Under the pieces are notes generated by a model. It saw nothing but the letters and a program-made list of their open reading frames with translations. It made no database searches and had not been told where the DNA came from. Positions 41,846 through 56,888 of a stretch of 64,000 nt of DNA are shown piece by piece. Made by a program: the position numbers and the translations under genes. Positions within the stretch are counted from its first letter, which is position 1. The number at the start of each line of letters is the position of its first letter. The stretch spans positions 1 through 64,000 of the forward strand of contig NZ_CP027559.1 of NCBI RefSeq assembly GCF_014854695.1, given 5' to 3'. The stretch is from Rhodococcus rhodochrous (GTDB lineage: Bacteria; Actinomycetota; Actinomycetes; Mycobacteriales; Mycobacteriaceae).

Positions 41846-41922
41846 TAATTATCATGCTTTGTGAAGCCTTTTCGATGTGTTTTACATGATTGTATGGTTG
41901 TTTTTTGATTCTTTTGTGATGC
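41846..41922 (-). repeat. array of seven phased 11-bp repeats (CATCAAAA core)
   Basis: On the minus strand seven 11-bp units follow without gap: GCATCACAAAA, GAATCAAAAAA, then four weaker or inverted units including ACATCGAAAAG and GCTTCACAAAG. The array ends about 55 bp before the gene at 41791 and covers its promoter region. The same unit occurs in five other arrays on this backbone. Confidence 0.75.
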
Positions 41923-42055
41923 GTAGGTGAGGACCGTGCCGGAGCCGTCGACCGAGGTTCGATGCCCCGGTCGACGGCCATGCGTGCCGGGGCCGGCACC
42001 CGGCGAGTGGCCTGGCCCGGTGGGCGGCCGACACGACCGCCCACCGGGAGGGGCG

Positions 42056-43525
42056 TTACTGCTCGTCGAGGGGGTCAAGTCCGGCGGCGCGGCGCTCGAT
42101 GTCGGCGAGGGTGTAGCCCTGGCCTTCGACGGCGCGCAGGTAGAACTGCGACAGGTCGGTGGGCTTGCGCCAGCGCTCGACGCCGACCTGGGACTCGAGG
42201 GCGACGAGGATATGGGCGCGTAGCAGGACCAGGGCGCGGGGGTCGGTGGCGCTGGCGAGCTTCGCGAGAGTGTCGGACGTGGGGAGCATCTGTTCGGCCA
42301 GGGTGCGGGCGTGATAGGCGGCGGGGATCTGGGGCCACTTCGTCAGCACTGTTGCCACGAATGAGGCGGTGCCCTTGGGGGCGGTCTTGCGGGTGGTCTG
42401 CTGGGCGACCCACTTGCGGCGGACCTCGGTGGCGGCTCGCCATTCGCGGTTGTTCTCGATCACTTCGCGCCGCTGAGCTGCGCGGTCCTCGGCACTCTGT
42501 TCCTGTTCGGACTCGGCGGGGCGGGGGTGTCCCCACCAGGTGCGCCAAGGGGTGTCTTCGATATTGACGACGTGCCAGTACAGCGTGGTCTCGTGGTTTT
42601 CGACGACGTTCTCGCGGGGAATCATCCATTCCTCGCGGGCATCGCCCTCGGGTAGCTCGTCCACGATGTAGTCCGCGTCGACCTCGTCGCCGCTCTCGCG
42701 GTCGAAATAGGTGGTGCAGCTGTAGACGTACAGCCCGAGGTGTCCGAGGGCGGCGACTTCTTCGATGGCGGGCGTGTTGCCTTCTTCATCGGTGACGCGC
42801 TCGACCAGCTGGCTGGTCCCCTCCCCCACTCTCTCGTGAAGAGCACCGAGCGGCACGGCGGCGATGGAGTGTTCTGCGAGGTACGCCTCGGCGCGGGCCA
42901 GTGCGGCGTTGCGTTCGGTGCGGCGCAACCGTTCGGCGGCGAGTGCGTGGTCGAGTCGTCCGCTGCCGATGGCCCACTCGATGCGGCGGACGGCAGCGGG
43001 ATCGTCGCCGAACTCGGCGAGGGCGGCGGCTTGTTCGATGGTCAGCTCGCCTCGTTGCACAGCGTCGCGCTGCTCGGTGTCGCGCAAGGTCAGGGCCGCC
43101 TCAACCTCGGTGCGGGGCGCCTTGGTGTGACGGGCGATCTTGGTGGAGGTCAGTCCGTGGTCGGCCAGGGCCTCGAACAGGGCCAGGCGCTCGCCGTTAG
43201 TGATCGCGGCGCGGTGTTCGTTCTCGCTCCACTGTGTGACGAGCCGTTCGACGGCGGCGTCGGTGCCATCGCCTTCGTCGCCGACAATGAGGGCGGGGAT
43301 CTGGGTCAGTCCGGCCTCGAGGGCGGCGGCGGTACGGCGATGGCCGGTGAGCACGCGCAGGGGTCCGGCGGCGGTGCGGCACACAGTGATGGGGGTCAGA
43401 ACCCCCTGCTCTGCGATCGACTCGCGGAAGGCATCGGTCAGGCGCAGGTCATGGCGGATGTTGGAGTCGGTGAGCAGGTCAGCGGGGTCGACGGTGGCGA
43501 ATTCGGCGGTGGTTCCGTTGTTCAT
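42056..43525 (-). CDS. parB: ParB/Spo0J-like nuclease-fold DNA-binding protein
   Basis: A 489-residue protein. It has a ParB N-terminal fold (FATVDPADLLTDSNIRHDL, IAEQGVLTPITVCR, LTGHRRTAAALEAG), then a central helix-turn-helix region (STKIARHTKAP, LTIEQAAALAEFG). A long C-terminal part follows with aromatic-rich segments and a closing helical domain. It is larger than chromosomal ParB and stands alone, away from parA. Its promoter carries five 11-bp repeats and the Tn3 transposon is inserted 85 bp upstream of its start. Confidence 0.88.
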   Translation of the reverse strand: MNNGTTAEFATVDPADLLTDSNIRHDLRLTDAFRESIAEQGVLTPITVCRTAAGPLRVLTGHRRTAAALEAGLTQIPALIVGDEGDGTDAAVERLVTQWSENEHRAAITNGERLALFEALADHGLTSTKIARHTKAPRTEVEAALTLRDTEQRDAVQRGELTIEQAAALAEFGDDPAAVRRIEWAIGSGRLDHALAAERLRRTERNAALARAEAYLAEHSIAAVPLGALHERVGEGTSQLVERVTDEEGNTPAIEEVAALGHLGLYVYSCTTYFDRESGDEVDADYIVDELPEGDAREEWMIPRENVVENHETTLYWHVVNIEDTPWRTWWGHPRPAESEQEQSAEDRAAQRREVIENNREWRAATEVRRKWVAQQTTRKTAPKGTASFVATVLTKWPQIPAAYHARTLAEQMLPTSDTLAKLASATDPRALVLLRAHILVALESQVGVERWRKPTDLSQFYLRAVEGQGYTLADIERRAAGLDPLDEQ

Positions 43526-43530
43526 GACTC

Positions 43531-43585
43531 AAGTTTACATCTTTTTTGATGCGTTTTCGATGTTTCTTTGATTCTTTTTTCATGC
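43531..43585 (-). repeat. array of five phased 11-bp repeats at the parB promoter
   Basis: Minus-strand units are GCATGAAAAAA, GAATCAAAGAA, ACATCGAAAAC, GCATCAAAAAA and GATGTAAACTT, directly abutting and ending 5 bp before the parB ATG. TAAACT in the last unit could serve as the -10 box. The transposon at 43611 cut off what lay further upstream. Confidence 0.8.
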
Positions 43586-43610
43586 TTTTCTGGTGACTGC
43601 TGTCACCCTT

Positions 43611-43654
43611 GGGGTAGCCGTAGCATTTGCCGAAAATCGGGCGGATATGGCGTA
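43611..43654 (+). repeat. left terminal inverted repeat of the Tn3-family element
   Basis: 44 bp beginning GGGGTAGCCGTAGCATTTGC, matching the complement of 50407-50450 with four mismatches. CCCTT lies directly outside. Confidence 0.95.
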
Positions 43655-43806
43655 GTGCCCGGTCGGTGATCCGCTCGGCCTGTTGGGTCGAAACGATCGT
43701 CTGTCTCGCCACCGGCTCCTGGCGGGCGCGGCGTATCCGCCCAGCTCGCCGACGATCCGATTCGGGCCAGAACTCGTGTGGGACGTAAGGGCCCGCAACC
43801 CAAGGT

Positions 43807-43842
43807 TGTCAGGAAGTGCAAAGTAGCGGGATCCTGACGACA
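43807..43842. promoter_or_regulatory. candidate resolvase (res) subsite
   Basis: TGTCAGGA and TCCTGACGACA face each other across 17 bp, next to the 3' end of the resolvase gene inside the transposon end. Size and place fit a res subsite where the serine recombinase binds and cuts. Other subsites were not resolved. Confidence 0.4.
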
Positions 43843-43855
43843 GGCTGGTGAATTC

Positions 43856-44473
43856 TCAGGCTCGTGGTGCAGCACTGCTGACGATGCGGTGGATGGTGGA
43901 GCGGCCGACGCTGTATTCCTCGGCCAGGTCCGCCAGGCTCGCGTCGTCGGCGGGGTCGTGGTAGCGGCGGTGGATTGTTTTCCGTGCCGTGAGAGGAAGT
44001 TTCGGCTGCTTGCCCTTGAGCCTGCCTTTCGCGCGGGCCTTGGCCATGCCCTCGCGGGTGCGTAGGTGGTTGAGGTTGGCCTCGAATTCGGCGACCATGG
44101 CCAAGGTTTGCAGGAAGAGCTTGCCGAACGGGTCGTTCCAGTCGTAGATCGAGCTCCCGAGTCCGAACAGCACCTCGCGCTCGCGCAGTTCGGTCAGGGT
44201 CTGGCCTGCTTCGGCCATGTTGCGTGCGAATCGGTCGAACTTCGGCGTGGTCAGCACTACCTGTCGCCCGTCGATGGCCGCCGCGGCGGAGGTGACGGCG
44301 GCGAGTGCGTTGTCGAGCCCGGCCCGGTTCTTGCGGGTGGTCCCGGAGAACCCTTTGTCGATGAAGATCCGCTCACGCGGCACTCCGAGCGCCAATAGCT
44401 GCTCGGTTTGGATCTCGACGTCTTGTTCGTCGGTGGAGCAGCGGCAGTATCCGACGCGGAACGGCTCACCCAT
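43856..44473 (-). CDS. tnpR: serine resolvase of the Tn3-family element
   Basis: Resolves transposition cointegrates. A 205-residue serine recombinase: catalytic Ser13 in YCRCSTDEQ, then KGFSGTTRKNRAGLDNAL, LTTPKFDRFARN, FLQTLAMVAEFEANLNHLRT, and a C-terminal helix-turn-helix LADLAEEYSVGRSTIHRIVS. The size and order of domains are complete. It reads toward the left end of the transposon. Confidence 0.94.
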   Translation of the reverse strand: MGEPFRVGYCRCSTDEQDVEIQTEQLLALGVPRERIFIDKGFSGTTRKNRAGLDNALAAVTSAAAAIDGRQVVLTTPKFDRFARNMAEAGQTLTELREREVLFGLGSSIYDWNDPFGKLFLQTLAMVAEFEANLNHLRTREGMAKARAKGRLKGKQPKLPLTARKTIHRRYHDPADDASLADLAEEYSVGRSTIHRIVSSAAPRA

Positions 44474-44601
44474 GCCGAAAGTGTTCCAGATAGCGGGGGC
44501 TGACCGGCACAGTCAGCGGAACACCTCTACGGAACACCGGTGAGCTGGGCCGACGTTGGCTCTGCGTGGTGTTCCGGTGGCCGATCCGGTTACGGAACAG
44601 G

Positions 44602-44883
44602 TCAGGGGGTGTTATCGGTGTGTGGGGGTGTGTTGTGGGTGAGGGCGTGCTGGTGGGCGGTCCGCAGGATGGCCTCGGTGGGAGTGGTGCCGCGTAGCTG
44701 GTAGGCGTCGGGTCCGAGCCGGTCGAGGTCCGCCCCGAGCTCACGTGCGTCGATGGGGTGGCGGGCGCAGATGATCAGGAGCCGGGCGTGGGTGGCGTGG
44801 GCGAGTTCGGCGGCGTGGTCGACCACACGGTAGGAGCGGTCGGATCCGTCGGTGTCGACGATGATCGTGCGATAGGCCGTCAT
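44602..44883 (-). CDS. short UspA-like protein, C-terminally truncated
   Basis: A 93-residue protein that begins like a universal stress protein (YRTIIVDTDGSDRSYRVVDH, AAELAHATHARLLIICA, PTEAILRTAHQHA). It stops where the GADLIVVG nucleotide-binding half should start, ending in a Thr/Pro-rich tail. It is thus probably a truncated UspA, no longer able to bind ATP. It lies 12 bp behind the MFS gene and is its operon partner. Confidence 0.7.
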   Translation of the reverse strand: MTAYRTIIVDTDGSDRSYRVVDHAAELAHATHARLLIICARHPIDARELGADLDRLGPDAYQLRGTTPTEAILRTAHQHALTHNTPPHTDNTP

Positions 44884-44895
44884 GACGGGCGTCTT

Positions 44896-46467
44896 TCACG
44901 AGAAGGGAGCGTGTTTTGCGGGGGAAATGGTCGAGATGTATCGGCGGCGTGGTGCGCGGCCGGGGGCCAGTACTGCCAGCACGATCGCCCCGACGGTGGT
45001 GAGGGCGGCCAGGGCGAGCGCGGCCTGGCCGCTGCCGTGCACGAACGCGGCCTTGGCGAACTCGGCCAGCGGTGCGGCCACCGGTCCGGCCTGGTCGGCG
45101 ACCTGCAGCGCCGCGGCCAGGGAATCGGCGACCGGGCCGCGGGCGGGCTCGGGCAACTGGGGCAGGGCGGGCTGGATGCGGTGGGTGTAGCCGGCGGCCA
45201 GCACGCTGCCGGCCACGGCGATCCCGATCGCGGCGCCGATCTCGCGGGCGGCGTCGTTGACCGCGGCGGCGACCCCGTGTTTGGCCTCGGGGGTGTCGGC
45301 GACGATGGCATAGGTCGCCGGCGCGGTGCACAATCCCAGGCCCGCGCTCATGATCAGCAGCGGCCACAGCAGGTCGAGGTAGTGCGCGGCGAGTGTCAGC
45401 CGGCTCACCAGCACCAGCCCGGCGGCGATGGTGAGCAGGCCGGCCACGGTCATCACCCGTAACCCGACCAGGCTCGACAGCCACGGCGCGATCACCGAGA
45501 TCACGACCAGCGGCACCACCATCGGCGCCAACGCCAGCGCCGAGGCCAGCGGCCCGTAACCGAAGACCAGCTGCAGGTACTGCACAAGCAGCAGGAATAC
45601 CCCGAAGGTGACCAGGAACTGGATGGTCACCGACAGCGACCCGGCACCGAAACCACGGCGGGCGAACAACCGCACATCCAGCAGCGGCGCCGCCGAGCGC
45701 AGCTCGACGACCACGAAGGCCGCCGTCGCGGCCACGCCGACCCCGGCGGCGGCGGCGACGAGCGGGTCGGCCCAGCCGCGCGCGGGGAACTCGATCACGG
45801 CGAACACGATCGCCGCGACAGCGACCGCCACCGCCACCGCGCCCACCCAGTCCACCTGCGGATGCTCGCGCTGGCGGGACTCGGCGATGGTGCACGCCAA
45901 CCCCGCCAGCACCGCCCCGGCCACGGTCAACCCTACGAACACCGATAGCCACGACCATCGTTCGAGCAGCACCCCGGCACCGAGAATCCCCAGTATCGCC
46001 CCGGATCCGGCGACCCCGGCCCATATCCCCACCGCCCGGCCGCGATGAGCGGGGGCGAACCCTGCAGTGAGGATCGACAGCGTCGAGGGCATCACCAGCG
46101 CGGCGCCTGCCCCGGCCAGCGCGCGCGTCGCGATCAACCAGGCCGGGTCGGACAGCAGCAGCGGCAGCGCCGAGGCGGCGGCGAACACCACCAACCCCAC
46201 CACCAGCACCACGCGGCGCCCGTAACGGTCACCGACGGCGCCGGCGGGCAGCACCAGACACGCCAGCACCAGCGTGTAGCCGTCGACGATCCAGGTCAGC
46301 TGGGCTTGGGTGGCCCCGGTCGCAAGCGCGATCTGCGGCAACGCCGAATACAACGCCGCCATCGCCGCGACCACCAGCGCCACCGCCAGGCACGACACCG
46401 CCAGCATCCACCACTGGGCCCTGGTCCAGCGGGCGATCTCGACAGTGTCCGTTCCGGGTGTGGCCAC
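44896..46467 (-). CDS. MFS drug efflux transporter, DHA2 (14-TM) type
   Basis: A 523-residue transporter of the EmrB/QacA group with about 14 helices. It has LTWIVDGYTLVLACLVLPAG and GDRYGRRVVLVVGL after helix 2, and GAALVMPSTLSILT in helix 5. The GTG at 46467 was chosen because GGGGAGG lies 5 bp upstream; the frame is open further 5'. It is divergent from the tetR gene across the palindrome at 46504. It is the cargo of the Tn3-family element and probably gives resistance to a hydrophobic compound not predictable from sequence. Confidence 0.9.
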   Translation of the reverse strand: MATPGTDTVEIARWTRAQWWMLAVSCLAVALVVAAMAALYSALPQIALATGATQAQLTWIVDGYTLVLACLVLPAGAVGDRYGRRVVLVVGLVVFAAASALPLLLSDPAWLIATRALAGAGAALVMPSTLSILTAGFAPAHRGRAVGIWAGVAGSGAILGILGAGVLLERWSWLSVFVGLTVAGAVLAGLACTIAESRQREHPQVDWVGAVAVAVAVAAIVFAVIEFPARGWADPLVAAAAGVGVAATAAFVVVELRSAAPLLDVRLFARRGFGAGSLSVTIQFLVTFGVFLLLVQYLQLVFGYGPLASALALAPMVVPLVVISVIAPWLSSLVGLRVMTVAGLLTIAAGLVLVSRLTLAAHYLDLLWPLLIMSAGLGLCTAPATYAIVADTPEAKHGVAAAVNDAAREIGAAIGIAVAGSVLAAGYTHRIQPALPQLPEPARGPVADSLAAALQVADQAGPVAAPLAEFAKAAFVHGSGQAALALAALTTVGAIVLAVLAPGRAPRRRYISTISPAKHAPFS

Positions 46468-46503
46468 CGGCACCTCCCCGACTTTGAAGACCAACGGTAT
46501 CTG

Positions 46504-46519
46504 TACGAGACCATTCGTA
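46504..46519. promoter_or_regulatory. TetR operator in the tetR/MFS intergenic region
   Basis: TACGA-GACCAT-TCGTA is a 16-bp inverted repeat about 40 bp from the MFS start and 80 bp from the tetR start, with related GGTATC and GTATCAT halves around it. Confidence 0.6.
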
Positions 46520-46596
46520 TCATAGTGGTTGGGGGGTGGGATAGAGTTCACCCATATCAAGAGTTCAACGACACGAATTCGGAGGAAGGCGCGTCC

Positions 46597-47265
46597 ATGA
46601 CCGACTCAGGCCCGGCGGCGACCGACCCGCTCGCCGCGGACGACGAGCAGGCCGATCCGCGACTGGCGCGCTCACGCAACCGGTTGCTCGACGCGGCCAC
46701 CCATCTGCTGTCCACCGGCGGTGTCGAGGCGGTCACCGTCGAGGCGGTCACCCGCGTGTCGAAGGTCGCCCGCGCCACCCTCTACCGGCACTTCGGCAGC
46801 ACCACCCAGCTGCTCGCGGCGACTTTCGAACGACTACTTCCCCAGGTCGACACACCGACCGGCACCGGGCCCGTGCGTGAGCGGCTCCTGGCGCTGCTCG
46901 CCAGCCAGGCCGACCTCATCGAACAGGCTCCGGTGCAGATGACCACCCTGGCCTGGCTGGCGATGGGTTCCATCGGCGAGGACCACCCCGACCCGGCCGC
47001 GGTCACCTCGCTGCGCGCGCGCGTCATCGAGCAGTACCGCCACCCGTTCGACCAGATCCTCACCAGTCCCGAGGCCCGCGCGATGCTCGGCGAGCTCGAC
47101 ACCACCTTCGCCATCATCGAACTCCTCGGCCCGATCGTGTTCGCCCGTCTCACCGGATTACGCAGCATCGACCACGACGACTGCACCCGGCTCGTCGACA
47201 ACTTCCTCACCGCCCACCGAACACCCACGCCAGCAGACACCGCTATCGACATCGCCACGCCGTAA
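46597..47265 (+). CDS. TetR-family repressor of the MFS pump
   Basis: A 222-residue repressor. After an acidic leader the helix-turn-helix reads LLDAATHLLSTGGVEAVTVE, AVTRVSKVARATLYRHFGST. The rest is an all-helical ligand and dimer domain. The ATG at 46597 has GGAGGAAGG upstream. Gene order and the shared palindrome make it the regulator of the divergent MFS gene; it converges on tnpA. Confidence 0.92.
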   Translation: MTDSGPAATDPLAADDEQADPRLARSRNRLLDAATHLLSTGGVEAVTVEAVTRVSKVARATLYRHFGSTTQLLAATFERLLPQVDTPTGTGPVRERLLALLASQADLIEQAPVQMTTLAWLAMGSIGEDHPDPAAVTSLRARVIEQYRHPFDQILTSPEARAMLGELDTTFAIIELLGPIVFARLTGLRSIDHDDCTRLVDNFLTAHRTPTPADTAIDIATP

Positions 47266-47288
47266 CCACGGGCCCCGGTTCCGCGCGG

Positions 47289-50200
47289 TCAGAACAAGGT
47301 GTCGCGCACCCGCAGCGGCCGGTACCCGGTCGGGCCCAGCTGGGCCAGCTCGGCGTCGATGTCGACCTCGATCGCGCCGAAGAAGTTGATGTTGGCACTG
47401 TGGGCCGGGCTGATGTGGGCCAGGACCTCGTCATCGATACGCTGCCCGGTCCGGCGCATCTGCTCGACAGCGAACCCGTAATACTCTGTGGTCCAGGCGA
47501 TCACAGCGTTGGTCGTCAAGGTCAGGCACCAGGCCTGCTCGGTCTGGTCCTCGAGGTGGCGCGCCCGGATCATCCCCTCATGGGCATAGAGCAGGTCGCG
47601 GCGCAGCGCGTGCAGCGACTCGCCCTTGTTGAGCTGCCGCGAGATCTTGCGCCGGTAGTCCGGATCGGAGAGGTATCTCGCGGCGTAAATGGTGCGCCGC
47701 AGCGCCCCGTACTCCTTGAGCGCCGCGGCCAGGGTGTTCTGCCGCCCCGACGCCGACAGCTTGCCGACCAACAGCGACGCGGTGGCGTGCCCGAACTTCA
47801 GCGATCCGGCCAACCGCAGCAGATCGTCCCAGTGCTCGGCGATCAAACCCAGGTTGGCCTTGCGGGTCATCAGCGGGCCCGCGTGCGGGAACCGGGCCTC
47901 GGCCTCGGCGCGCGGGCCCGGCCGGTACAGGGTGATCCGCCCCAGATCCCGGATCCGTGGCGAGAGCTGCATCCCGAGCAGGTCGAACAACCCGAAGTTG
48001 ACCAGGGTGACCCCGTGGGTGTCGGTGGCGTGCTCGGTGATCGGCAGATCGGTGGCGTTGCCCAGGATCTCATCGAGCACGTAGTGGGCTTCGCGTTTGG
48101 TCGCCACGATGACCTTGGTGCCGTAGGTGGCGTGGGTGTCGCTGACATGGGTGTAGGTCGACAGGCCCTCGCTGGCGAAATAGCGGCTCAACGGCCGCGC
48201 CGTGGTCGACTTACCGCGCGTCGGGAAACGCTGCCCGTCGCTCGACGACAGTGTTCCGGCGCCGAACACCGCGGTCAGCGGCAGCCGCTGGTGGTAGCCG
48301 ACCAGTACCAGGTTGGCCGCGCGCAGGGTCTCCTCGCGCACATACCACTCGTCGGTCCAGGCCAGGATGTCGTAGGTGATTCCGCACGCCTCGGCCATCC
48401 GGGTCAACCCCAGGTTCGTCGAGTGCGCCAGCAGTACCGCGATCAGGTTGCGTTTGAGCTCCGGCGTCCGGGTGGCCTGACCGCCGGCGTGGGTGAAGCA
48501 GTCCAGGTAGCCGGTGCGTTTGTCCAGCTCGATCAGCAGCGACACGATCGGCGCGAACGGCAGCATTTCGGTCAGCTCGGCCTTGAGCGTGATCGCCTCG
48601 GCGGGAACATCTTCCGCGCTCAGCGGCGAGATCACCAGATCCCCGCCCTCGTCCAGCCGGACCGGGCCGTCCCCGCCGGCCAGCACCTCCTCCAGCTCAC
48701 CGAGAGCGTCGTGCAGTTCGGCGACCACGGTGGCCAGCGCGACGCCAGGATCGGCGGATCGCCCGACCAGGCCGCAGAACTCAACGCGTTGCGGTTCCCA
48801 CTGCCCGGTGGTGAGCAGGTAGGCGGCCGGGTCGGCGTAACGGCGCGAGCCCGGCACGAACACATCCCCGCTGCGCAACCCGTCACGCAATCCGAGCAGC
48901 ACACACAACTCCCAGTAGTGCCGATACGCGGTCGCGCTGCCGGATTTGCGGGCCTCGTCGAGGTAGCCGCGCCACTTCATCGGCACGAACCCGGTCGGGG
49001 CGTCATCGAAGACCTTGCGCCGCCCGGTCGCGTTCAACTCGCGCAGCATGTTCACCGCGATCAGCAACTCGGTCGCGGCGGTACCGCCGCAGAAGCGCAC
49101 CGCTTCGAGCACCGCGGGGGTGAACTGACGCAGGTAGTTGTAGGAGGAATCCAACGCCGCCAGATGCCCGTGATCACGCGGCAACCTGGGCTTGGCCTGG
49201 GCGATCGCCGCGCGCAGGCGCTCCCACCCGATCTTCTCGCCGCGGATCAGCGCACCGATCTCCTCATCCGGAACGCCGGGGTCGGTGACGATTTCCAACA
49301 GATCGTCCAGCAGCGCCTGACGGTCCTCTCCAGTCTTTCCTCGTTCGGCCAGCCGCTGCTGCATCTTCCGTTCGGCAGCACCGAATTTCACCGAGATCGC
49401 CTGATCGAACAACGCCACGACCTCATCGAGGACATCGGTGCCGGACTGGGCCAGCACCGTGAGCAGGATCGGATACCGGCGTTGCGGATCCCGACGTTGC
49501 AGCGCTTGCGGACTCAGGCGCCGGCCCATCGTGGCCAAAAACCGGCGCCGCTCGGCGGGCAGCACCGACATATCCAGCCGATCAGCGCCCAACCCGCGCA
49601 GGAAACCCAGCTTGTCGACCTCGGCGCGGACCGCGGCCGCCGAGGCCTCCACCGGCCCGGTCGACAGCCACCGCAACCGCGAGATCCCCAGCGAAGCGTC
49701 GGTGACAAGCAAGCCGTCCAACTCCGCGCACCGCGCCGCAGTGAACTCGTGAGCGAGCCGGTCATAGGTTTCGGTCTGGGCCTGGTGGCGGGCGTGGGCG
49801 ACCCGCTCGACCACGGTGACCGGGCCTGGCCGGATCACCTTCGCCGAGATCAGATACTCACACGCCAGCCGGAACAGCAGAGTCGGGGAATCGTGCTCCA
49901 TCGCCCGCGCGAGCAGGAACTCATCGAGCTCCTTGAACTCGAGCGCACCGACCGCACGCCATCCCAGGTACCGCGCGGCCAGGCGCACATGCTCGGTGCG
50001 GGTCTTGGCTCGCCTGCCGTAGGCACCGATCACCACCGGATCCAACCGCAACTGCTCGGCGACACGAGCCACCGCCACCGGCGGAGCCGTGACCAGCCGA
50101 TCCGGCACGAATCCCAGCCACGGCAGCGTACACAACGCGATCGCCAAGCCCAGCCGCTCGGCTGGGCCCCGGCCCCGGCCCGGATCCACGAACGCCAGAT

Positions 50201-50303
50201 CCGCAGGCGTCAGCGTGAAGTACCGGAACAGCTCCTCGCGGCTGATCTCCGGGAATCCCCGCAGTCGTTCCAACTCCTCGTCCGCGAACATCCGCGTCGC
50301 CAC
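47289..50303 (-). CDS. tnpA: Tn3-family transposase
   Basis: A DDE transposase of about 1004 residues, full length for the family. The N-terminal DNA-binding part includes RTEHVRLAARYLGWRAVG. The catalytic half has YDILAWTDEWYVREETL, FPTRGKSTTARPLSRYFASE, EHATDTHGVTLVNFGLFDLL, and NAVIAWTTEYY near the end. The GTG at 50303 was preferred for its GGAGG; the frame extends seven codons further. It ends 24 bp from tetR and starts about 100 bp from the right inverted repeat. Confidence 0.95.
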   Translation of the reverse strand: MATRMFADEELERLRGFPEISREELFRYFTLTPADLAFVDPGRGRGPAERLGLAIALCTLPWLGFVPDRLVTAPPVAVARVAEQLRLDPVVIGAYGRRAKTRTEHVRLAARYLGWRAVGALEFKELDEFLLARAMEHDSPTLLFRLACEYLISAKVIRPGPVTVVERVAHARHQAQTETYDRLAHEFTAARCAELDGLLVTDASLGISRLRWLSTGPVEASAAAVRAEVDKLGFLRGLGADRLDMSVLPAERRRFLATMGRRLSPQALQRRDPQRRYPILLTVLAQSGTDVLDEVVALFDQAISVKFGAAERKMQQRLAERGKTGEDRQALLDDLLEIVTDPGVPDEEIGALIRGEKIGWERLRAAIAQAKPRLPRDHGHLAALDSSYNYLRQFTPAVLEAVRFCGGTAATELLIAVNMLRELNATGRRKVFDDAPTGFVPMKWRGYLDEARKSGSATAYRHYWELCVLLGLRDGLRSGDVFVPGSRRYADPAAYLLTTGQWEPQRVEFCGLVGRSADPGVALATVVAELHDALGELEEVLAGGDGPVRLDEGGDLVISPLSAEDVPAEAITLKAELTEMLPFAPIVSLLIELDKRTGYLDCFTHAGGQATRTPELKRNLIAVLLAHSTNLGLTRMAEACGITYDILAWTDEWYVREETLRAANLVLVGYHQRLPLTAVFGAGTLSSSDGQRFPTRGKSTTARPLSRYFASEGLSTYTHVSDTHATYGTKVIVATKREAHYVLDEILGNATDLPITEHATDTHGVTLVNFGLFDLLGMQLSPRIRDLGRITLYRPGPRAEAEARFPHAGPLMTRKANLGLIAEHWDDLLRLAGSLKFGHATASLLVGKLSASGRQNTLAAALKEYGALRRTIYAARYLSDPDYRRKISRQLNKGESLHALRRDLLYAHEGMIRARHLEDQTEQAWCLTLTTNAVIAWTTEYYGFAVEQMRRTGQRIDDEVLAHISPAHSANINFFGAIEVDIDAELAQLGPTGYRPLRVRDTLF

Positions 50304-50406
50304 GACCTCAGCCTCCACCAGCACCGACCAACATCATCATCGGCAGTCAAGCACCAACCAGTCGACAGTGCATGCCGAACTCGAAACCCCTTGCCCACCA
50401 GTCGGA

Positions 50407-50450
50407 TACGCCAAATCCGCCCGATTTCCGGCGGATGCTACGGCTACCCC
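50407..50450 (-). repeat. right terminal inverted repeat of the Tn3-family element
   Basis: 44 bp whose complement begins GGGGTAGCCGTAGCATCCGC. It pairs with 43611-43654 and is followed by the CCCTT target duplication. Confidence 0.95.
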
Positions 50451-50519: not shown

Positions 50520-50987
50520 TCAAGCTTCTATGCGGTCGTGGATGGGCAGGATTATGGATCGGTGGCCGAGATACCGTTCGGACAGCTCGCCCAGTCTCGA
50601 GTCGGAGGTTCCGGCGTAGTTGCCTCCGAACATCACCACTCGCCCCGGCTCCGCTAGTTCGTACCGACGATGATCGGCGTTCCATCCGACCCCGACCAGA
50701 GCGGCATAGCTGCCTTCGACGAAGGCATAGCGGCGAATCCGTACGGCGACGGCGGGGCTGATCTGCTCACGGCCGCCGACGTGGCTTCGCACTCCGTGGG
50801 GGGTGCAGCCGGACGGCAGTGGCGCGATGCGGCCCGTGCGGGCGCGGCGCTCATCAAGGACGCCGACCAGAAGAAGAGCGTCGGCGGCAGCGCTGATACC
50901 ACCGTTGGTGCAGTCGCCGAGGCGGTGGGCGCGGTAGACATCGAGCAGGAGACCGGCGGGGCGATGGTCGTTCTCGTTGTTGTTCAT
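50520..50987 (-). CDS. plasmid backbone hypothetical protein
   Basis: A 155-residue protein of mixed alpha/beta character with no membrane segment (GLLLDVYRAHRLGDCTNGGI, RRYAFVEGSYAALVGVGWNA, ELSERYLGHRSIILPIHDRI). I do not recognise it. The ATG at 50987 is joined directly to a five-unit 11-bp repeat promoter and to a 335-bp block that is duplicated at 54971. A terminator follows its stop. Confidence 0.7.
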   Translation of the reverse strand: MNNNENDHRPAGLLLDVYRAHRLGDCTNGGISAAADALLLVGVLDERRARTGRIAPLPSGCTPHGVRSHVGGREQISPAVAVRIRRYAFVEGSYAALVGVGWNADHRRYELAEPGRVVMFGGNYAGTSDSRLGELSERYLGHRSIILPIHDRIEA

Positions 50988-51325
50988 GACTCTATTTTAT
51001 ATCTGTTTTGATGACTTTTCGATGATTTACTGGTGCTCTTTCGGTGCTTTTCTGGTGATGCCGGTCACACGTTTTAGGCTTTGACCTGCGGTTTTGCAGG
51101 TGTAACGCGTGGTTCGGCGGCGGTGGTGGAGCGGGTACCTCGGTCGGTCGGTGCTGCCCTGGTGAACCGGGCGCGGCGGGCGCCGGGCAAGGGCGGGTTT
51201 TCCCTTGCTCGGTGGTCGGCGGGTCCGGTAGGGCCGTGTGTGGTGACCGGGCGCGGTACCCGCGGAGCAGCGGGAACCTTGGGAGTGAGGGACAGGGGTC
51301 CCGGGGGCGGAGCCCCCGGGCATCG
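50986..51325. repeat. about 335-bp duplicated promoter block, copy 1
   Basis: Nearly identical to 54971-55318 in the same orientation. It contains the 11-bp array next to a start codon, then a GC-rich part with CCTCGGTCGGTCGGTGCTGC and the hairpin CCCGGGGGC-GGA-GCCCCCGGG at 51300-51320. No frame in it is shared intact between the copies, so it is non-coding. The genes that follow each copy are unrelated. Confidence 0.85.
50993..51047 (-). repeat. array of five phased 11-bp repeats
   Basis: Minus-strand units are GCACCGAAAGA, GCACCAGTAAA, TCATCGAAAAG, TCATCAAAACA and GATATAAAATA, ending 5 bp before the ATG at 50987. TATAAA/TAAAAT in the last unit can act as the -10 box. Confidence 0.8.
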
Positions 51326-51439: not shown

Positions 51440-51781
51440 TCAGTCCTCGTCGGTGCTGTCGTTCTTGCTGCCTCGGGCTTTGCGTCGGCGTACCTTCTCC
51501 ACATCGGGGAAGGGCTCGCCGCCGTTGTATTCCTCTTCGAGCTTGTGGGTGTACTCGGCGATGGCGGCCTCGATGAAGCTGTTGAGACTGCCGTGCGCGC
51601 CGGGGTAGACACCGCGCAGACCCTTTTGAGCGTTGGTCGCAGCGTCGATGACGGATTCGGCGAGGGTGAACGTGCGCCGGGTCAAGGCGGGCTGCTGCAC
51701 GATCTTCTTCGGTGCTGCGGCCCGTACCGGGACGTTCTCGTCGGGAGCTTCGGCGTCGAACATGCTGCGGATGTCGCTCAT
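51440..51781 (-). CDS. ParB-like ribbon-helix-helix centromere-binding protein
   Basis: A 113-residue partner of ParA. After a disordered acidic N-terminus comes the RHH-like core (RRTFTLAESVIDAATNAQKG, GAHGSLNSFIEAAIAEYTHK), then LEEEYNGGEPFP and a basic tail. The same core with EHN-G-PW appears in the two proteins at 60203 and 60457. The ATG overlaps the parA stop. By analogy with type Ib systems it should bind short repeats at its centromere; the 11-bp arrays are the best candidates. Confidence 0.85.
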   Translation of the reverse strand: MSDIRSMFDAEAPDENVPVRAAAPKKIVQQPALTRRTFTLAESVIDAATNAQKGLRGVYPGAHGSLNSFIEAAIAEYTHKLEEEYNGGEPFPDVEKVRRRKARGSKNDSTDED

Positions 51782-52578
51782 GACTTCTTCCTTTGAGTAA
51801 TGGTGGCGGCCAGGTCGTCATAGACCCAGACGTGACGCCAACCGTCCTTCGTGTCCGCGAGGGATACCCCGTCGTTGACGGCCCTCTTGATCGGCTCGGC
51901 GGATTGGACGCTGCCCAGGACAGGGATGCCAGCCTCGGTGAACTGGGTTGTCCAGGCGCGAGCGAGGACCGTTCCGGACTGCACCTTGTTGAGGATGGTG
52001 CCGCGGACCCACAGATTGCCGTTGTGCCGCTTCTTGATGCTCTGGGCGTACGAGGTCACGCCCTGCATGGCCGCGATGCTGAAATCATGCGCTTCGTTGA
52101 GGACGATGAGCTGGTCAGCGGCCACGAGCGCGCACATCTCGAGGGCATTTCGCGTGGGGGAGCAGTCGATGAGGATGTAGTCGTAGCGGTCACGGATCGG
52201 CTCGAGTGATTCCCGCAGGACGTGAGGGCCTTCGATGGGATCGTTCGTGATGTTCTTCTCGGCGCCGATGAGGTGGGCTGCGTTCGCTGGGGCGGCGATG
52301 AGGTCGACGCCGGGGCGCACTGCGTCGAGGATCGCCTCGGCAGCAGGCTTTCGGGTCTCCGGGTCTATATCGACGATGTGGTCGGCGGTCACCTTCGTTG
52401 CGGCGCGGAGGTCGGGCTGCAACTTGGTGAGGGTGTGGGTGAGGTTGCCGGAGGGATCAAGGTCGACCAGGAGCACCTTCGCGCCGGCACGAGCGAGGGC
52501 TTCACCGACATTGAGCACGGTGGTGGTCTTGCCCACCCCGCCCTTCTCGTTGCCGATCAGAATGATTTTCGAACTCAT
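51778..52578 (-). CDS. parA: ParA plasmid partition ATPase
   Basis: Walker-type ATPase that moves plasmid copies apart over the nucleoid. About 266 residues from the ATG at 52578 (GGGAGG upstream): deviant Walker A NEKGGVGKTTTVLN, VLLVDLDPSGNLT, and YILIDCSPTRNALE. It lacks the N-terminal helix-turn-helix of type Ia ParA, so it is type Ib with the small RHH partner that overlaps it. Four 11-bp units lie just before its ribosome site. Confidence 0.94.
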   Translation of the reverse strand: MSSKIILIGNEKGGVGKTTTVLNVGEALARAGAKVLLVDLDPSGNLTHTLTKLQPDLRAATKVTADHIVDIDPETRKPAAEAILDAVRPGVDLIAAPANAAHLIGAEKNITNDPIEGPHVLRESLEPIRDRYDYILIDCSPTRNALEMCALVAADQLIVLNEAHDFSIAAMQGVTSYAQSIKKRHNGNLWVRGTILNKVQSGTVLARAWTTQFTEAGIPVLGSVQSAEPIKRAVNDGVSLADTKDGWRHVWVYDDLAATITQRKKS

Positions 52579-52586: not shown

Positions 52587-52630
52587 TTTCTTGATGCAAG
52601 AATACATCATTTCTGATTCATAAAGCGTGC
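52587..52630 (-). repeat. four 11-bp repeat units at the parA promoter
   Basis: Minus-strand units are GCACGCTTTAT, GAATCAGAAAT, GATGTATTCTT and GCATCAAGAAA, running into the parA ribosome site. The units are weaker than in other arrays but keep the 11-bp step. Confidence 0.6.
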
Positions 52631-53060
52631 TCTTCTGGTTCTTATCGGATGACGGTTTCGTGACTGGCGCGGACTGTGTGGCGTTGTATCTGTTCAGGTT
52701 CGTTTCCATGTCAATGGTGGATGGAACAGCGAGGGCCAGGGCTCGATGCCCTGGCCGTCGGCCACCGCTGCCACTGGGGGTGGGGGTGGTGGGGTGACTC
52801 TGGTTGCGTTCGCAGGGTTTCCAGTCCTGGCGGCTGGTGCGTGGCGCTAGCGAACATCCAACACTCTCGATGGCGGTCGTGCACAGGGGGCCGCTGGGAT
52901 TCGCGCCGGCTCGTGGTCGGCGGTGGGGTCTGCGCGGCGCAGCCGCTCCTTCGGGTTCGGTTTTCGGCCGGCCTCGCGGTGGCGGCAGACCGTAGAGGTG
53001 TGGCGGATATAGCGGCGGCCCGAGCCGTGGCCGTGAGGGGCGTCCGGCTCGGGCCGTGGG
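52631..53060. other. GC-rich region with no convincing gene
   Basis: About 430 bp between the parA promoter and the next minus-strand gene. Long open frames exist on both strands but are full of Trp, Arg, Gly and Cys runs and look like chance frames. I see no repeat or hairpin of note. Confidence 0.5.
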
Positions 53061-53456: not shown

Positions 53457-53519
53457 GGCGTCCTCGCGGCGAGTGGGGACCGGCGGCCGCGGCCGGGGTC
53501 GCGGCCGCCGGATTGTGGG

Positions 53520-54461
53520 TTACTGACCTGGGCGGATGGGGGTGTGGGCGTCCTCGGCCCGGACGTCGGTGATCTTGTCGTAGGGCAGTCGGTCGGTCCA
53601 GCTGTAGGCGGTGGCGACGGTGACCGACTTTGCGTTGACTCGGATCACCTTGTGCCAGGTGCCGGAACAGTTGACGAAGCATCCGGGGCGTAGGTCGGCG
53701 CGGCTGTAGAGCTTGGGGCCGTCGGTGGCGTCCTGTTCGGCGCGTACTGCGGTCCAGTATTCGATGTCGCGCTCGAGTTCGGCTTTGTTGAGTTCGAGCT
53801 GGTGCATGTGGCTGCTGGTCTCGGCAGTGTGTCCGGCAGCGCGGTACTTGGTGAGGTGACGTTCGATGCTGCGTAGTTCGGCGCTTTGTCGTTCGATGCG
53901 GCGGTGGATCACTGCGGGGGTGTAGCGGTGATCGGTGCTGCGGGCGGCGATGCGGGCGGATTCGGCGGCTGAGCGGGCGGCGGCGTCGGCTTCGATCGCG
54001 GCGCGGGCGGTGGTGTGGGCGCGGTCGAGGGCGCGGCGGTGGCGTCGTTCGCTGTGATGTCCCACCTTGATGGGTTCTCCGCCTTCGGGCAGCGCGGCAC
54101 AGGCGTGGTCGTGGCGTGCGTGGGCGGCGTCGGCGGCGGTGGCTTTGCGTTCGGCCTTGGCTGTGAGGGCGTCGGCGCGGTCGGTCAGACGTTCGTTGCG
54201 GTCGTGGTGGGCGTCGGTGCCGTCGCGAAGGGTCGTGTCGATGTCGGTGTCGACGTCGTGTCCGGCGGCGCGCAGGGCGGCGGCGGTGTGTTCGATGCGG
54301 GAGAGGTGGGGGGCGCGGTCGCGGCTGTGCGGGATGTACCAGGCGGTGATGCTGCGTCCCCATTTCCAACCTGCGGTTTTGAGGATCGGGGCGGTGCCGT
54401 CGCCTTTGCTGGTGCCGTCGATGATCGTGCCCTCTGTTGGGGTGTGCGTGATGGTGAGCAT
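53520..54461 (-). CDS. DUF3560 domain protein
   Basis: A 313-residue protein of a family typical of plasmids and conjugative elements. The N-terminal part (GTIIDGTSKGDGTAPILKTA, SITAWYIPHSRD) is followed by an Ala-rich coiled-coil region (about 60-230; ERLTDRADALTAKAERKATA) and a C-terminal small beta domain (LRPGCFVNCSGTWHKVIRVN). The domain function is not known. It follows the 71-residue gene in a row of four backbone genes. Confidence 0.85.
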   Translation of the reverse strand: MLTITHTPTEGTIIDGTSKGDGTAPILKTAGWKWGRSITAWYIPHSRDRAPHLSRIEHTAAALRAAGHDVDTDIDTTLRDGTDAHHDRNERLTDRADALTAKAERKATAADAAHARHDHACAALPEGGEPIKVGHHSERRHRRALDRAHTTARAAIEADAAARSAAESARIAARSTDHRYTPAVIHRRIERQSAELRSIERHLTKYRAAGHTAETSSHMHQLELNKAELERDIEYWTAVRAEQDATDGPKLYSRADLRPGCFVNCSGTWHKVIRVNAKSVTVATAYSWTDRLPYDKITDVRAEDAHTPIRPGQ

Positions 54462-54755: not shown

Positions 54756-54781
54756 CGCGTCTTTCCTTCCGGGGTGGTCGG

Positions 54782-54973
54782 TCAGCTGAGGCCGGATTCG
54801 ATTGCGGCGCTGATTTCGTCCTCGGTCATGCCTGCGGCACGGGCGGCGGCCTTGGCGTCGCGGGACTCGGCCAGGACTACGGAGATGTCCTGGCCGGTCG
54901 AGATGTTCTCGAGCAGGGCGTCGATGTCGCGGCCGAGGTTGTGGAGCTTCGCGGTGATGGCTTCCTTGCCCAT
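54782..54973 (-). CDS. small helical plasmid protein
   Basis: A 63-residue acidic helical protein (ITAKLHNLGRDIDALLENIS, AKAAARAAGMTEDEISAAIE). The C-terminal part resembles a UBA-like three-helix fold, an impression only. It is the first gene behind the five-unit 11-bp array and heads the group leading to DUF3560. Confidence 0.7.
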   Translation of the reverse strand: MGKEAITAKLHNLGRDIDALLENISTGQDISVVLAESRDAKAAARAAGMTEDEISAAIESGLS

Positions 54974-55318
54974 GCCTCTAGTTTACATCTGTTTTGATGT
55001 TTTTACGATGTGTTGTTGGTGCTTTTTCGGTGCTTTTCTGGTGATGCTGGTTACACCTTTTAGGCTTTTACCTGCGGTTTTGTGGGTGTAGCGGGGTGGT
55101 TCGGCGGTGGTGGAGCGGGTACCTCGGTCGGTCGGTGCTGCCCTGGTGAACCGGGCGCGGCGGCTGCCGGGCAAGGGCGGGTTTTCCCTTGCTCGGTGGT
55201 CGGCGGGTCCGGTAGGGCCGTGTGTGGTGACCGGGCGCGGTACCCGCGGAGCAGCGGGAACCTTGGGAGTGAGGGACAGGGGTCCGGGGGCGGAGCCCCC
55301 GGGGATCTGTAGAGCCGA
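54971..55318. repeat. about 335-bp duplicated promoter block, copy 2
   Basis: Second copy of the block at 50986-51325, about 90 percent identical by eye and nearly perfect over 55110-55300. It again ends in the GC hairpin (GGGGGC-GGA-GCCCCC). The IS630 element was inserted 33 bp beyond it. Confidence 0.85.
54979..55033 (-). repeat. array of five phased 11-bp repeats
   Basis: Minus-strand units are GCACCGAAAAA, GCACCAACAAC, ACATCGTAAAA, ACATCAAAACA and GATGTAAACTA, ending 5 bp before the ATG at 54973. A further GCATCACC lies 14 bp upstream. Confidence 0.8.
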
Positions 55319-55351
55319 TGCTCACGGCAGGCGAGCCGGGGCACACTCCTA

Positions 55352-56556
55352 GTGGCTCGTCACGCAACCTTGGCCGGGTAATGCGGGTACTCGGCCCACG
55401 ACCGGATCGGTGAGTCCGGGGCGAACCGGGTCTTCGGCTCGGCACGAGCATTGCGCCACCGCATATACGACGCGATCGCAGTGTTCTGCTCGGCATGACT
55501 GCGATGATCGGTGCCGTTGAGCGCGAAATACCGCAAGGCGGCGAATTCCGCCTCGATCCAGTTCAGCCACGACCCGTAGGTCGGCAGAAACACCAACTCG
55601 ACGTCGTTGTCCTTAGCCCACCTGCGGACACTCAGGTGCCGGTGCGGGGAGAAGTTGTCCAGGACCACATACAACTTCTCCCCGGGCCACCTGGCCCGCA
55701 ACACCTTCAGAAGATCGAGGAACTCACCGGCACGTTTGCGCGGACGAATCCGGTAATACATTCGGCCGCTGGACAGATCGAGTGCGGCGAGCATGTGCAT
55801 CACCCCGTCGTAGCGGTGATACGTCGCCCGCAACCGTGCAGGACGGGTGGCCGGCCGCCACGATTTCCCTTTCCGCGGCTGCAGGTTCAGCGGACCGAAC
55901 TCGTCCACACAGACCACCCGACCGTCGGCCGGCGGGGTGTCGTACAGATCCAAGATCGTGCGCATCTTCGACAGGAAATCCGGATCGGTCGAGGCCTTCC
56001 ACGTCGTGGTCGACTGCCAGGTGACCTTCCCGTCGCGCAGGATGCGGCGCAGCGTCTCACGACTGATCGTCGGCACGATCTTCTGCGCGATCAGGTGCTC
56101 GGCCAGTTTGGCCAGACTCCAGGTGGAGAACCCGGCGATTTTCCAATCGGCGGGGGACGTCCGGGCGATCAAGCAGATCTTCTCGCGGGTCTGCTCATCG
56201 ATCGTCTTCGGTCGTCCCCCTTTCCATTTTGGGTGCAACGCCTCGAATCCCTGCTCGTTGAACGCGTGGATGACATCGCGGACGTAGTCGTCGCTGACCT
56301 GGATCAACGAGGTGATGTCCTTGACGGTCTGGCCTTGCGCGGACATCAGCACCACGATGGCGCGGCGGAGTTTGATCGGGTCCTTGGCGGTGCGGCTGAT
56401 CTTCTGCAGCCGCCGGCCTTCCTCCATGGTCAACGATCGAACGAACACGCTCGGTTTGCGTGCCACGACTACCTCCTTGTCTCGACTCGGAGACAGTCTG
56501 CCGTGGACGTGTCGGTCAGCCGCGGATTACCCGGTCAACAATCCGAGACGAGCCAC
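55352..56556. mobile_element. IS630-family insertion sequence
   Basis: A 1205-bp element with terminal inverted repeats beginning GTGGCTCGTC and extending imperfectly for 31 bp to GGGTAAT. A TA lies directly outside each end (55350-55351 and 56557-56558), the TA duplication expected for IS630. One transposase gene fills it. Confidence 0.92.
55360..56466 (-). CDS. IS630-family transposase
   Basis: A 368-residue DDE transposase. It has an N-terminal double helix-turn-helix (KDITSLIQVSDDYVRDVIHA, STWSLAKLAEHLIAQKIV) and a catalytic domain with VVCVDEFGPLNL, YVVLDNFSPHRH and FLPTYGSWLNWIEAEFAALR, giving the D, D and E. The GTG at 56466 has GGAGG 5 bp upstream. The gene appears intact and complete. 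Confidence 0.94.
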   Translation of the reverse strand: MARKPSVFVRSLTMEEGRRLQKISRTAKDPIKLRRAIVVLMSAQGQTVKDITSLIQVSDDYVRDVIHAFNEQGFEALHPKWKGGRPKTIDEQTREKICLIARTSPADWKIAGFSTWSLAKLAEHLIAQKIVPTISRETLRRILRDGKVTWQSTTTWKASTDPDFLSKMRTILDLYDTPPADGRVVCVDEFGPLNLQPRKGKSWRPATRPARLRATYHRYDGVMHMLAALDLSSGRMYYRIRPRKRAGEFLDLLKVLRARWPGEKLYVVLDNFSPHRHLSVRRWAKDNDVELVFLPTYGSWLNWIEAEFAALRYFALNGTDHRSHAEQNTAIASYMRWRNARAEPKTRFAPDSPIRSWAEYPHYPAKVA

Positions 56557-56558
56557 TA

Positions 56559-56811
56559 GCAAGGGCGAGGGGCACCGTCCGCCGGCCGCGGGAGCATACG
56601 TTTGCCGGCCCCGAGACCAACGAGGCCAAAATCCGACTGCCACACCGACCCTTGAGCACACTGCTCGTCGACACCCGAGACGACCCGAAGGGGGTCCGGG
56701 GGCGAATCGCCCCTGGTCAACGCCGCAAATGCGACTCGGCGCACCCAACCGGGGACGATTCCCGAGTTCGATACGCCGAGGTGAGACTGTCAGGCATCAG
56801 ACGTGGGCATT
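56559..56811. other. non-coding region between IS630 and the 11-bp array
   Basis: No convincing gene. This DNA lies where a gene downstream of the array at 56812 would be expected on the minus strand, so it may be what was left after a deletion or the IS insertion. Confidence 0.45.
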
Positions 56812-56888
56812 TTTTGATGTCGGTCTGATCTCTTGTTGATTCAGATTTGAAGCTGAAAAGTTGCTTTTTCGATGACCTTGTGATGCTC
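56812..56888 (-). repeat. array of seven phased 11-bp repeats behind DUF2637
   Basis: Minus-strand units run GAGCATCACAA, GGTCATCGAAA, AAGCAACTTTT, CAGCTTCAAAT, CTGAATCAACA, AGAGATCAGAC and CGACATCAAAA without gaps. The array begins in the stop codon of the DUF2637 gene. It points toward 56811, where no intact gene is found. Confidence 0.75.

What the first reader, a model, noticed from the sequence alone, without database searches (positions are those of the whole stretch)
41846..56888. Six arrays of exactly phased 11-bp CATCAAAA repeats across the plasmid backbone
Arrays of 4-7 units at 41846, 43531, 50993, 52587, 54979 and 56812 all keep an 11-bp step and all point the same way (minus strand). 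Five sit directly in promoters, including those of parA and the parB-like gene. A-tracts in phase with the helix should bend the DNA. Dispersed operator/centromere repeats bound by a small RHH protein are known from the omega protein of pSM19035 (heptads) and 11-bp repeats from R1 parC. The RHH protein at 51440, partner of ParA, is the natural candidate, so partition and gene control may be joined here.
Basis: partly seen in the sequence, partly recalled or inferred. Interest (0 to 1): 0.85.

Follow-up and report, generated by a model that had tools for sequence, protein, structure and literature searches.

The report
Phased operator arrays across plasmid promoters
A Rhodococcus plasmid carries seven stretches of short DNA units repeated every 11 bases, six of them placed in the promoters of its own housekeeping genes, probably so that one small plasmid-partition protein can control those genes together and perhaps also grip the plasmid for segregation.

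Summary
A motif-blind period-11 scan of the 64-kb window returns exactly the six reported arrays as its six best period-11 hits (7.03 to 4.73; simulated maximum 4.55); the four strongest exceed every other period tested, the two weakest do not. A seventh lies 31 kb beyond the window's end on the same 120-kb plasmid; all seven are on one strand. The unit is CAYCRNAAAAG rather than CATCAAAA. Six arrays, including a degenerate one at parA, end 2-3 bp before a -10-like element. In four gene families the start codon follows the array by 15 nt (16 in one plasmid), which looks leaderless, and unit 4 usually holds a -35-like TCGAAA 17 bp upstream of the -10. The array was found in 13 of 72,556 plasmid records, all Rhodococcus, exactly the 13 with the full-length ParA partner, and in none of 383 sampled genomes of other genera in the family. 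Best reading: a plasmid-wide operator regulon bound by a plasmid-encoded protein, most likely the ParA partner (a divergent relative of pCXC100 ParB), analogous to omega/parS of pSM19035. Binding, repression and centromere role are inferred. Four arrays share duplicated DNA; the 56.8-kb array precedes no recognised gene start.

The parts
41856..41921 (-). Array 1: six 11-bp units, upstream of the small gene 41519-41791 and the gene at 40658-41164, which by position matches the gene annotated DnaB-like N-terminal in related plasmids
   Evidence: gene order; no Pfam hit for 40658-41164 itself
43541..43595 (-). Array 2: five units; -10 TAAACT 43532-43537; start codon at 43525, 15 nt after the array
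42056..43525 (-). ParB_N protein, 489 aa (P0005), leaderless start inferred
   Evidence: (PF02195 2.3e-8)
51003..51057 (-). Array 3: five units; -10 TAAAAT 50994-50999; start at 50987
50520..50987 (-). 155-aa protein of unknown family (P0004)
52608..52662 (-). Array 4: five degenerate units in the parA promoter, in the same register to the -10-like TATTCT (52599-52604)
   Evidence: searches (24.9 against simulated maximum 22.6 of 60; 4.73 against 4.55), weak alone; conserved in related plasmids
51778..52578 (-). ParA ATPase, 266 aa from the ATG (the ORF listing TTG start gives 273 aa)
51440..51781 (-). ParA partner, 113 aa (P0001), candidate array-binding protein, overlaps the end of parA
54989..55043 (-). 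Array 5: five units; -10 TAAACT 54980-54985; start at 54973
54782..54973 (-). 63-aa protein (P0006), first gene before the DUF3560 gene (53520-54461)
56809..56885 (-). Array 6: seven units just after the DUF2637 stop codon, not in front of a recognised gene start; conserved in the three related plasmids aligned (one has a 1-bp insertion)
60203..60460 (-). CB_ParB_C protein, 85 aa (P0002), alternative binder
   Evidence: (9.9e-10)
60460..60732 (-). Second CB_ParB_C protein in tandem (C-terminal part of P0003)
   Evidence: (1.1e-6)
60823..60885 (-). Two 27-bp repeats 36 bp apart upstream of the tandem CB_ParB_C genes: a different candidate operator or iteron

Best explanation
The arrays are cooperative operators of a plasmid-encoded regulator. 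About five copies of the protein would sit side by side, one per 11-bp unit on one face of the helix, over the -35 region and up to the edge of the -10. They would thereby repress, and keep in step, the promoters of parA and its partner, the ParB_N gene, the DnaB_N-type operon, the 63-aa/DUF3560 genes, the 155-aa gene and the DUF4192 gene. The regulator is most likely the ParA partner P0001, autoregulated through the parA array, so that partition and backbone gene dosage share one protein, as with omega of pSM19035. The arrays, the 56.8-kb one first, may also serve as dispersed centromere sites. Shown: the arrays, their positions, conservation and confinement to this plasmid lineage in the collections searched. 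Inferred: the -35/-10 and leaderless reading, repression rather than activation, the identity of the binder, and the centromere role.
For: Motif-blind detection and fixed register. Of 47 distinct promoter arrays in related sequences, 31 have a start codon exactly 15 nt after the array, 2 (both from genome G004) at 16 nt, 6 are parA at 29 nt with a Shine-Dalgarno, 6 are the DnaB_N-type operon, and 2 (L085, L185, both genome G013) have slipped registers. Among the 31, unit 4 has G at base 5 in 28, exact TCGAAA 17 bp from the -10 in 24, exact TAAACT in 25. TANNNT is the mycobacterial -10, centred 7-12 bp before the start site (PMC3898074, passages). Plasmid-encoded binder: of 18 genus genomes, arrays occur in 8, exactly the 8 with P0001; 0 of 383 sampled other-genus genomes of the family; in the three array-bearing genomes of 3-4 contigs all pattern hits (4 of 4, 5 of 5, 3 of 3) lie on one contig of 70-120 kb; 13 of 72,556 plasmids carry the array, the same 13 accessions that carry P0001 over at least 80% of its length. 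P0001: partner position, promoter carries an array, 3no7 its best solved-structure hit (E 0.0084; next 0.73), profile match to CB_ParB_C partners (hhalign probability 95.9 over 32 columns). RHH centromere proteins bind direct repeats (R1 11 bp, pB171 10 bp, pSK41 20 bp: PMC9426499, passages; pCXC100 direct repeats only: PMC5016525, passages). Parallel cases, read by eye: the word in the parA promoter recurs at other backbone promoters in Leifsonia, Cryobacterium, Xylanimonas, Microbacterium J1-1 and Dietzia plasmids.
Against: No binding or expression data. Co-occurrence equally fits P0002, P0003 and P0005. The parA array, which should be good if P0001 is the autoregulator, is the weakest promoter array (108 of 2000 shuffles). 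Two plasmids (pLW4, pDF01) carry a P0001-like RHH region at 78-79% identity over 73 residues but no array. Pfam gives P0001 no hit and its structure prediction is poor. Four of the seven arrays share duplicated DNA. The parA promoter has no -35-like match in unit 4 (CACGCTTTATG), so the -35 reading fits the module promoters, not all.
Confidence: 0.5

Rival explanations
1. The arrays are operators of another plasmid-encoded DNA-binding protein: the ParB_N protein P0005 acting like KorB, or P0002/P0003, or the DUF2637 protein with its C-terminal HTH.
For: P0002, P0003 and P0005 co-occur with the arrays. P0005 is itself an array target and has a ParB HTH hint (E 0.013). The DUF2637 protein has an HTH_23 hit at 3.3e-5, just under the curated cut-off, and precedes the 56.8-kb array.
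Against: P0005 relatives in other plasmids lack this array at their promoters: 7 promoters read (the Dietzia one has a different repeated word) and 39 further loci show only marginal period-11 scores, none at ParB_N. ParB HTH proteins normally bind palindromes rather than phased direct repeats (recalled). The region upstream of P0002/P0003 carries a different repeat and no array.
Confidence: 0.25
2. No dedicated binder: phased A-tracts act as intrinsic curvature or UP-like elements, or attract a host nucleoid protein such as Lsr2.
For: AA/TT steps are helically phased in four of six arrays (0 to 5 of 1000 shuffles).
Against: The CAYC half of each unit is conserved base by base beside the A-run, which curvature does not need. 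In the three array-bearing genomes of 3-4 contigs no pattern match lies outside the 70-120 kb plasmid-sized contig; draft genomes could not be judged. The parA array is not A-phased (268 of 1000).
Confidence: 0.15
3. The arrays are mainly centromere or incompatibility sites and their place in promoters is secondary, as in R1 parC.
For: Dispersed, all in one orientation over 120 kb. The 56.8-kb array lies in a conserved stretch without a recognised gene start.
Against: Six of seven arrays end 2 to 3 bp from a -10-like element, with fixed geometry to the start codon in four families; a pure centromere needs no such register.
Confidence: 0.1

Closest known systems
omega (ParB) and parS of pSM19035
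   Same: Small partition protein beside ParA; several contiguous-repeat arrays overlapping promoters, the parA promoter included, dispersed on the plasmid; at least four contiguous repeats matter there (PMC9499535, passages) and five are usual here
   Different: Repeat step 11 bp instead of 7; other word; all units in one direction; targets include ParB_N, DnaB_N, DUF3560 and DUF4192 genes, none recognised as copS; leaderless promoters; binding untested
Type Ib partition system of pCXC100 (ParB, entry 3no7)
   Same: ParA plus downstream small partner; direct-repeat centromere (PMC5016525, passages); P0001 and P0002 families match 3no7 (E 0.0084 and 1.2e-13 as profiles); actinobacterial plasmid
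   Different: P0001 has no Pfam CB_ParB_C hit; here the repeats recur at many backbone promoters. The primary pCXC100 paper was not held; that 3no7 is that ParB is recalled
parC of plasmid R1 (ParMRC)
   Same: 11-bp direct repeats bound by a ParR (PMC9426499, passages), flanking the par promoter (title of a reference shown)
   Different: Actin-type ATPase there, ParA here; one locus there (recalled), seven arrays here
KorB/KorA regulon of RK2
   Same: A ParB-type protein acting as long-range repressor on plasmid promoters (PMC11790492, passages)
   Different: KorB is a CTP-dependent sliding clamp acting from OB sites (passages); no phased direct-repeat arrays (recalled; the phrase 'direct repeats' has 0 occurrences in that paper's main text)

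Membership tests
pSM19035-type parS arrays (omega regulon) | Contiguous direct-repeat arrays overlapping several plasmid promoters including parA | tested here: met
   (the parA array is weak alone)
pSM19035-type parS arrays (omega regulon) | 7-bp heptad WATCACW | tested here: not met
   11-bp step, CAYCRNAAAAG; lag 7 identity 0.296 against 0.507 at lag 11
pSM19035-type parS arrays (omega regulon) | RHH partner binds the arrays and represses | not testable with these tools
   needs footprinting and reporters
Type Ib ParABS (pCXC100-like) | Short ParA followed by a small partner gene | tested here: met
   266-aa ParA, 113-aa partner overlapping its end
Type Ib ParABS (pCXC100-like) | Partner has the RHH C-terminal domain (CB_ParB_C) | tested here: inconclusive
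   P0001 no Pfam hit; 3no7 E 0.0084 as profile, 0.21 as single sequence; hhalign probability 95.9 to CB_ParB_C partners; model pLDDT 59.2, all helical; relatives L196 and pLW4 hit PF18064 below cut-off (0.03, 0.012)
Type Ib ParABS (pCXC100-like) | Direct-repeat centromere at the parA promoter | tested here: inconclusive
   degenerate array at 52608-52662; matrix 24.9 against 22.6, but 108 of 2000 shuffles
KorB-type global regulator | HTH ParB acting from its own separate operator sites on the plasmid (feature partly recalled) | tested here: not met
   sites are phased direct repeats; ParB_N plasmids elsewhere lack them

The most novel reading that the evidence does not exclude
In this Rhodococcus lineage the ParA partner is at once partition protein and master repressor: seven one-way arrays of 11-bp units over 120 kb form a multi-site centromere and a plasmid-wide switch on mostly leaderless promoters. 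This would be one case of a rule for actinobacterial plasmids, that the parA operator word, different in each lineage (phased CAYC arrays, CACCAT units, TGATATCA, AGTACT palindromes), is copied to other backbone promoters. Orphan partner copies on co-resident plasmids (pLW4 beside pLW3, pDF01 beside CP016820), which keep the DNA-binding region but not the N-terminus, could interfere with it.
Probability: 0.25. Interest if true: 0.75.

Novelty: new variant of a known kind. Interest (0 to 1): 0.55.

Why it matters
If true, partition and backbone gene expression of a family of large Rhodococcus plasmids run on one small protein, which would explain how such plasmids keep dosage and segregation coupled and would supply compact promoter-operator modules for actinobacteria. 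It also gives a simple sequence test, the parA operator word repeated at other promoters, for finding such regulons in other plasmids.

Tried and rejected
Chance periodicity: rejected for the set, not for the parA array taken alone. Host regulator with chromosomal sites: no pattern match outside the plasmid-sized contig in the three array-bearing genomes of 3-4 contigs, and none in 383 sampled other-genus genomes. ParB_N as the carrier of the arrays: 7 distant ParB_N promoters and 39 further loci lack them; three marginal hits there (L139, L141, L151; 4.32-4.52 against their own simulated maxima of 4.15-4.26) are not at the ParB_N position, and one contig end (L160) scored 6.13 at period 11 and equally at another period. 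Dietzia as independent proof of period 11: its five arrays score 4.31-4.91 against a simulated maximum of 4.79 and look like copies of one promoter, so they support a shared promoter word more than the period; the word CACCATRNACG (one mismatch allowed) occurs 25 times there against 7-12 in five simulations, many of the 25 away from the arrays. A CB_ParB_C survey in 298 genomes gave 20 loci, all scanned, none with a period-11 score above 4.01. AlphaFold of P0001: mean pLDDT 59.2, all-helical, not used for a fold search. Rfam: 0 hits in the window at gathering scores. One array's DNA against phages: no match. A 16-codon leaderless reading frame before the DnaB_N-type operon gene was considered and left, because a Shine-Dalgarno-like AAGGAG precedes the next start. 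Set aside before the count of 47: 14 rows (11 distinct) without a -10-like element in register, mostly the DUF2637-end array, plus contig-end copies of one R. zopfii array and an HM1 array. In print: searches listed no paper on these arrays; that is the held open-access library only, some listings were capped (8 of 1,956, 12 of 55, 6 of 38), and titles and abstract starts were what I saw.
Full report
WHAT IS THERE. The window is part of a 120,167-bp contig (C3) of a 6.09-Mb, 4-contig genome, and the 40-64 kb stretch matches Rhodococcus plasmids, the best 13 records at 92-96% identity over 33-71% of it. Read on the minus strand, the reported places break into 11-mers: for example 43,595-43,541 reads CACCAGAAAAG CATGAAAAAAG AATCAAAGAAA CATCGAAAACG CATCAAAAAAG and is followed by ATGTAAACTTGAGTC and the ATG.

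IS IT MORE THAN CHANCE. A scan that uses no motif gives the six reported arrays as its six best period-11 places (7.03 to 4.73), against a maximum of 4.55 in 20 simulated 64-kb sequences. The best scores at periods 9, 10, 12, 13 and 14 are 5.35, 4.80, 4.68, 4.13 and 4.45, so the four strong arrays stand above every period and the two weakest do not. Identity at lag 11 is 0.507 and at lag 22 0.491, with 0.27-0.40 at the other lags from 4 to 30; dinucleotide shuffles reach the observed lag-11 value in 1, 1, 0, 108, 1 and 6 of 2000. The fourth of these, the parA array, is therefore weak alone; it still scores 24.9 with a matrix not trained on it, against 22.6 as the maximum of 60 simulations, and it recurs in related plasmids. 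The 95.6-kb array, also untrained, scores 53.0. Over all of C3 there are seven arrays, all on the minus strand. On three related whole plasmids 48 of 48 two-unit matches lie on one strand, with one match of the backward control pattern.

ANATOMY. Six of the seven arrays end 2-3 bp before a -10-like element. From 47 distinct promoter arrays (identical copies dropped; 14 rows without a -10-like element in register set aside), 31 have a start codon 15 nt after the array, 2 at 16, 6 are parA at 29 nt with a Shine-Dalgarno, 6 belong to the DnaB_N-type operon, and 2 from genome G013 have slipped registers. With TAAACT ending 6 nt before the start codon, the four 15-nt families look leaderless; TANNNT is centred 7-12 bp before 73% of primary start sites in M. 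tuberculosis, where no conserved -35 was found (PMC3898074, passages). In these 31, unit 4 has G at its fifth base in 28, exact TCGAAA 17 bp from the -10 in 24 and exact TAAACT in 25, so the array covers a presumed -35; repression is the simpler reading. The parA promoter lacks this -35-like word. The target genes are ParB_N, the 155-aa gene, parA with its partner, the 63-aa gene before DUF3560, the DnaB_N-type operon and DUF4192. The 56.8-kb array follows the DUF2637 stop codon in a stretch conserved in the three related plasmids aligned, without a recognised gene start.

INDEPENDENCE. The arrays at 51.0, 55.0 and 95.6 kb lie in a duplicated module of about 350 bp (90-92% identical) and the 43.5-kb array shares 80-90 bp of it at 80-84%. 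So there are four separate sequence contexts, not seven; within the duplicates the unit letters have drifted while the step has held.

DISTRIBUTION. Eight of 18 genus genomes hold the pattern, 0 of 383 sampled others of the family. Of 72,556 plasmid records 13 hold the array DNA, all Rhodococcus, 50 places (records very near the window's genome may be left out). The same 13 accessions hold P0001 over at least 80% of its length, while 2 more records hold a partial P0001-like RHH region and no array. P0002 at 81% identity or more marks the same 13. A plasmid-encoded binder is thus favoured, but co-occurrence does not choose among backbone proteins.

WHO BINDS. P0001 is beside ParA, its promoter bears an array, and its family profile finds 3no7 at E 0.0084, the next hit being at 0.73; that 3no7 is pCXC100 ParB is recalled. 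hhalign ties it to CB_ParB_C partners (probability 95.9 over 32 columns). Its RRTFTLA strand is identical in the four array-plasmid homologues aligned with it, and the motif looks the same in their plasmids, so they offer no covariation test. Against it: no Pfam hit, a poor model, and a weak parA array. P0002/P0003 have a clear CB_ParB_C domain, but the region upstream of them carries two 27-bp repeats 36 bp apart, found in the window and in 4 of 7 related loci scanned, and no array.

PARALLELS. In Leifsonia, Cryobacterium and Xylanimonas plasmids with CB_ParB_C partners, an AGTACT-centred palindrome lies just before the parA start (its first base 33-34 bp upstream) and recurs: 5, 7 and 4 plus-strand matches with at most one mismatch in the 20-24 kb pieces read (minus-strand matches were not printed), among them one before ssb in all three; a shorter form, AGTACTAAT, precedes the ArdC-like gene in two. 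Microbacterium amylolyticum (L188), with a CB_ParB_C-type gene found by the same search, has only one match. In Microbacterium J1-1, TGATATCA occurs at 4 places in 72 kb: two before parA, and one each more than 300 bp before the ArdC-like and glutaredoxin genes; its parA promoter has a period-11 array (5.75 against a simulated 4.64). In Dietzia pDK313-83 a promoter with CACCAT units recurs five times, ParB_N included, and CGCACCATGC occurs twice, both in the parA promoter; its period-11 scores are marginal. These are leads for a rule, read by eye against annotation tables, not a statistical survey.

COMPARISON. pSM19035 has six parS sites of 7-10 heptads over the copS, delta and omega promoters; one dimer binds one heptad, and at least four contiguous repeats are needed to activate ParA (PMC9499535, passages). 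R1 ParR needs at least two 11-bp repeats (PMC9426499, passages). KorB of RK2 shows a ParB-type protein as long-range repressor (PMC11790492, passages). The present system works like the first, with another step, word and target set. No paper on these arrays was seen in the listings, some of them capped.

VERDICT. Observation confirmed with corrections; interpretation partly supported; a new variant of a known kind; the decisive evidence is footprinting.

Noticed in passing
window 43611-50450: A Tn3-family transposon (MFS transporter, TetR regulator, recombinase in the annotation of its copies) at 99.5-100% identity in the 16 Rhodococcus records H14-H29 sits directly upstream of array 2, between the ParB_N array and the 155-aa gene, whose arrays are 615-617 bp apart in four other genomes of the genus.
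   Followed up: partly
window 55345-56560: A DDE_3 transposase gene with matching end sequences (GACGAGCCACTAG) splits the stretch between array 6 and the 63-aa promoter module.
   Followed up: partly
window 60823-60885: Two perfect copies of ATTCGGGTAGGNCAYGCCRAGCCATAT 36 bp apart upstream of the tandem CB_ParB_C genes, present in 4 of 7 related loci scanned: operator or iteron.
   Followed up: partly
L018 16917-17234 and L019 16917-17234: Orphan P0001-like proteins on pLW4 and pDF01 keep the RHH region (78-79% over 73 residues) but not the N-terminus; both strains also carry a full array plasmid.
   Followed up: partly
L187, L189, L190: A TAACAGTACTRTTAG-like palindrome before parA, ssb and other backbone genes in Leifsonia, Cryobacterium and Xylanimonas plasmids.
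   Followed up: partly
window 41834-41838: A 16-codon reading frame starts 17 nt after array 1 and its stop overlaps the ATG of the next gene; it may be a leader peptide or nothing.
   Followed up: no
L085 / L185 (G013): ParB_N in this genome has 3 in-frame TGA, the 155-aa gene is cut to 39 aa and two arrays have slipped registers: decay or sequencing error.
   Followed up: no
window 20724-20826: A tRNA-Leu (gag) gene on the plasmid.
   Followed up: no
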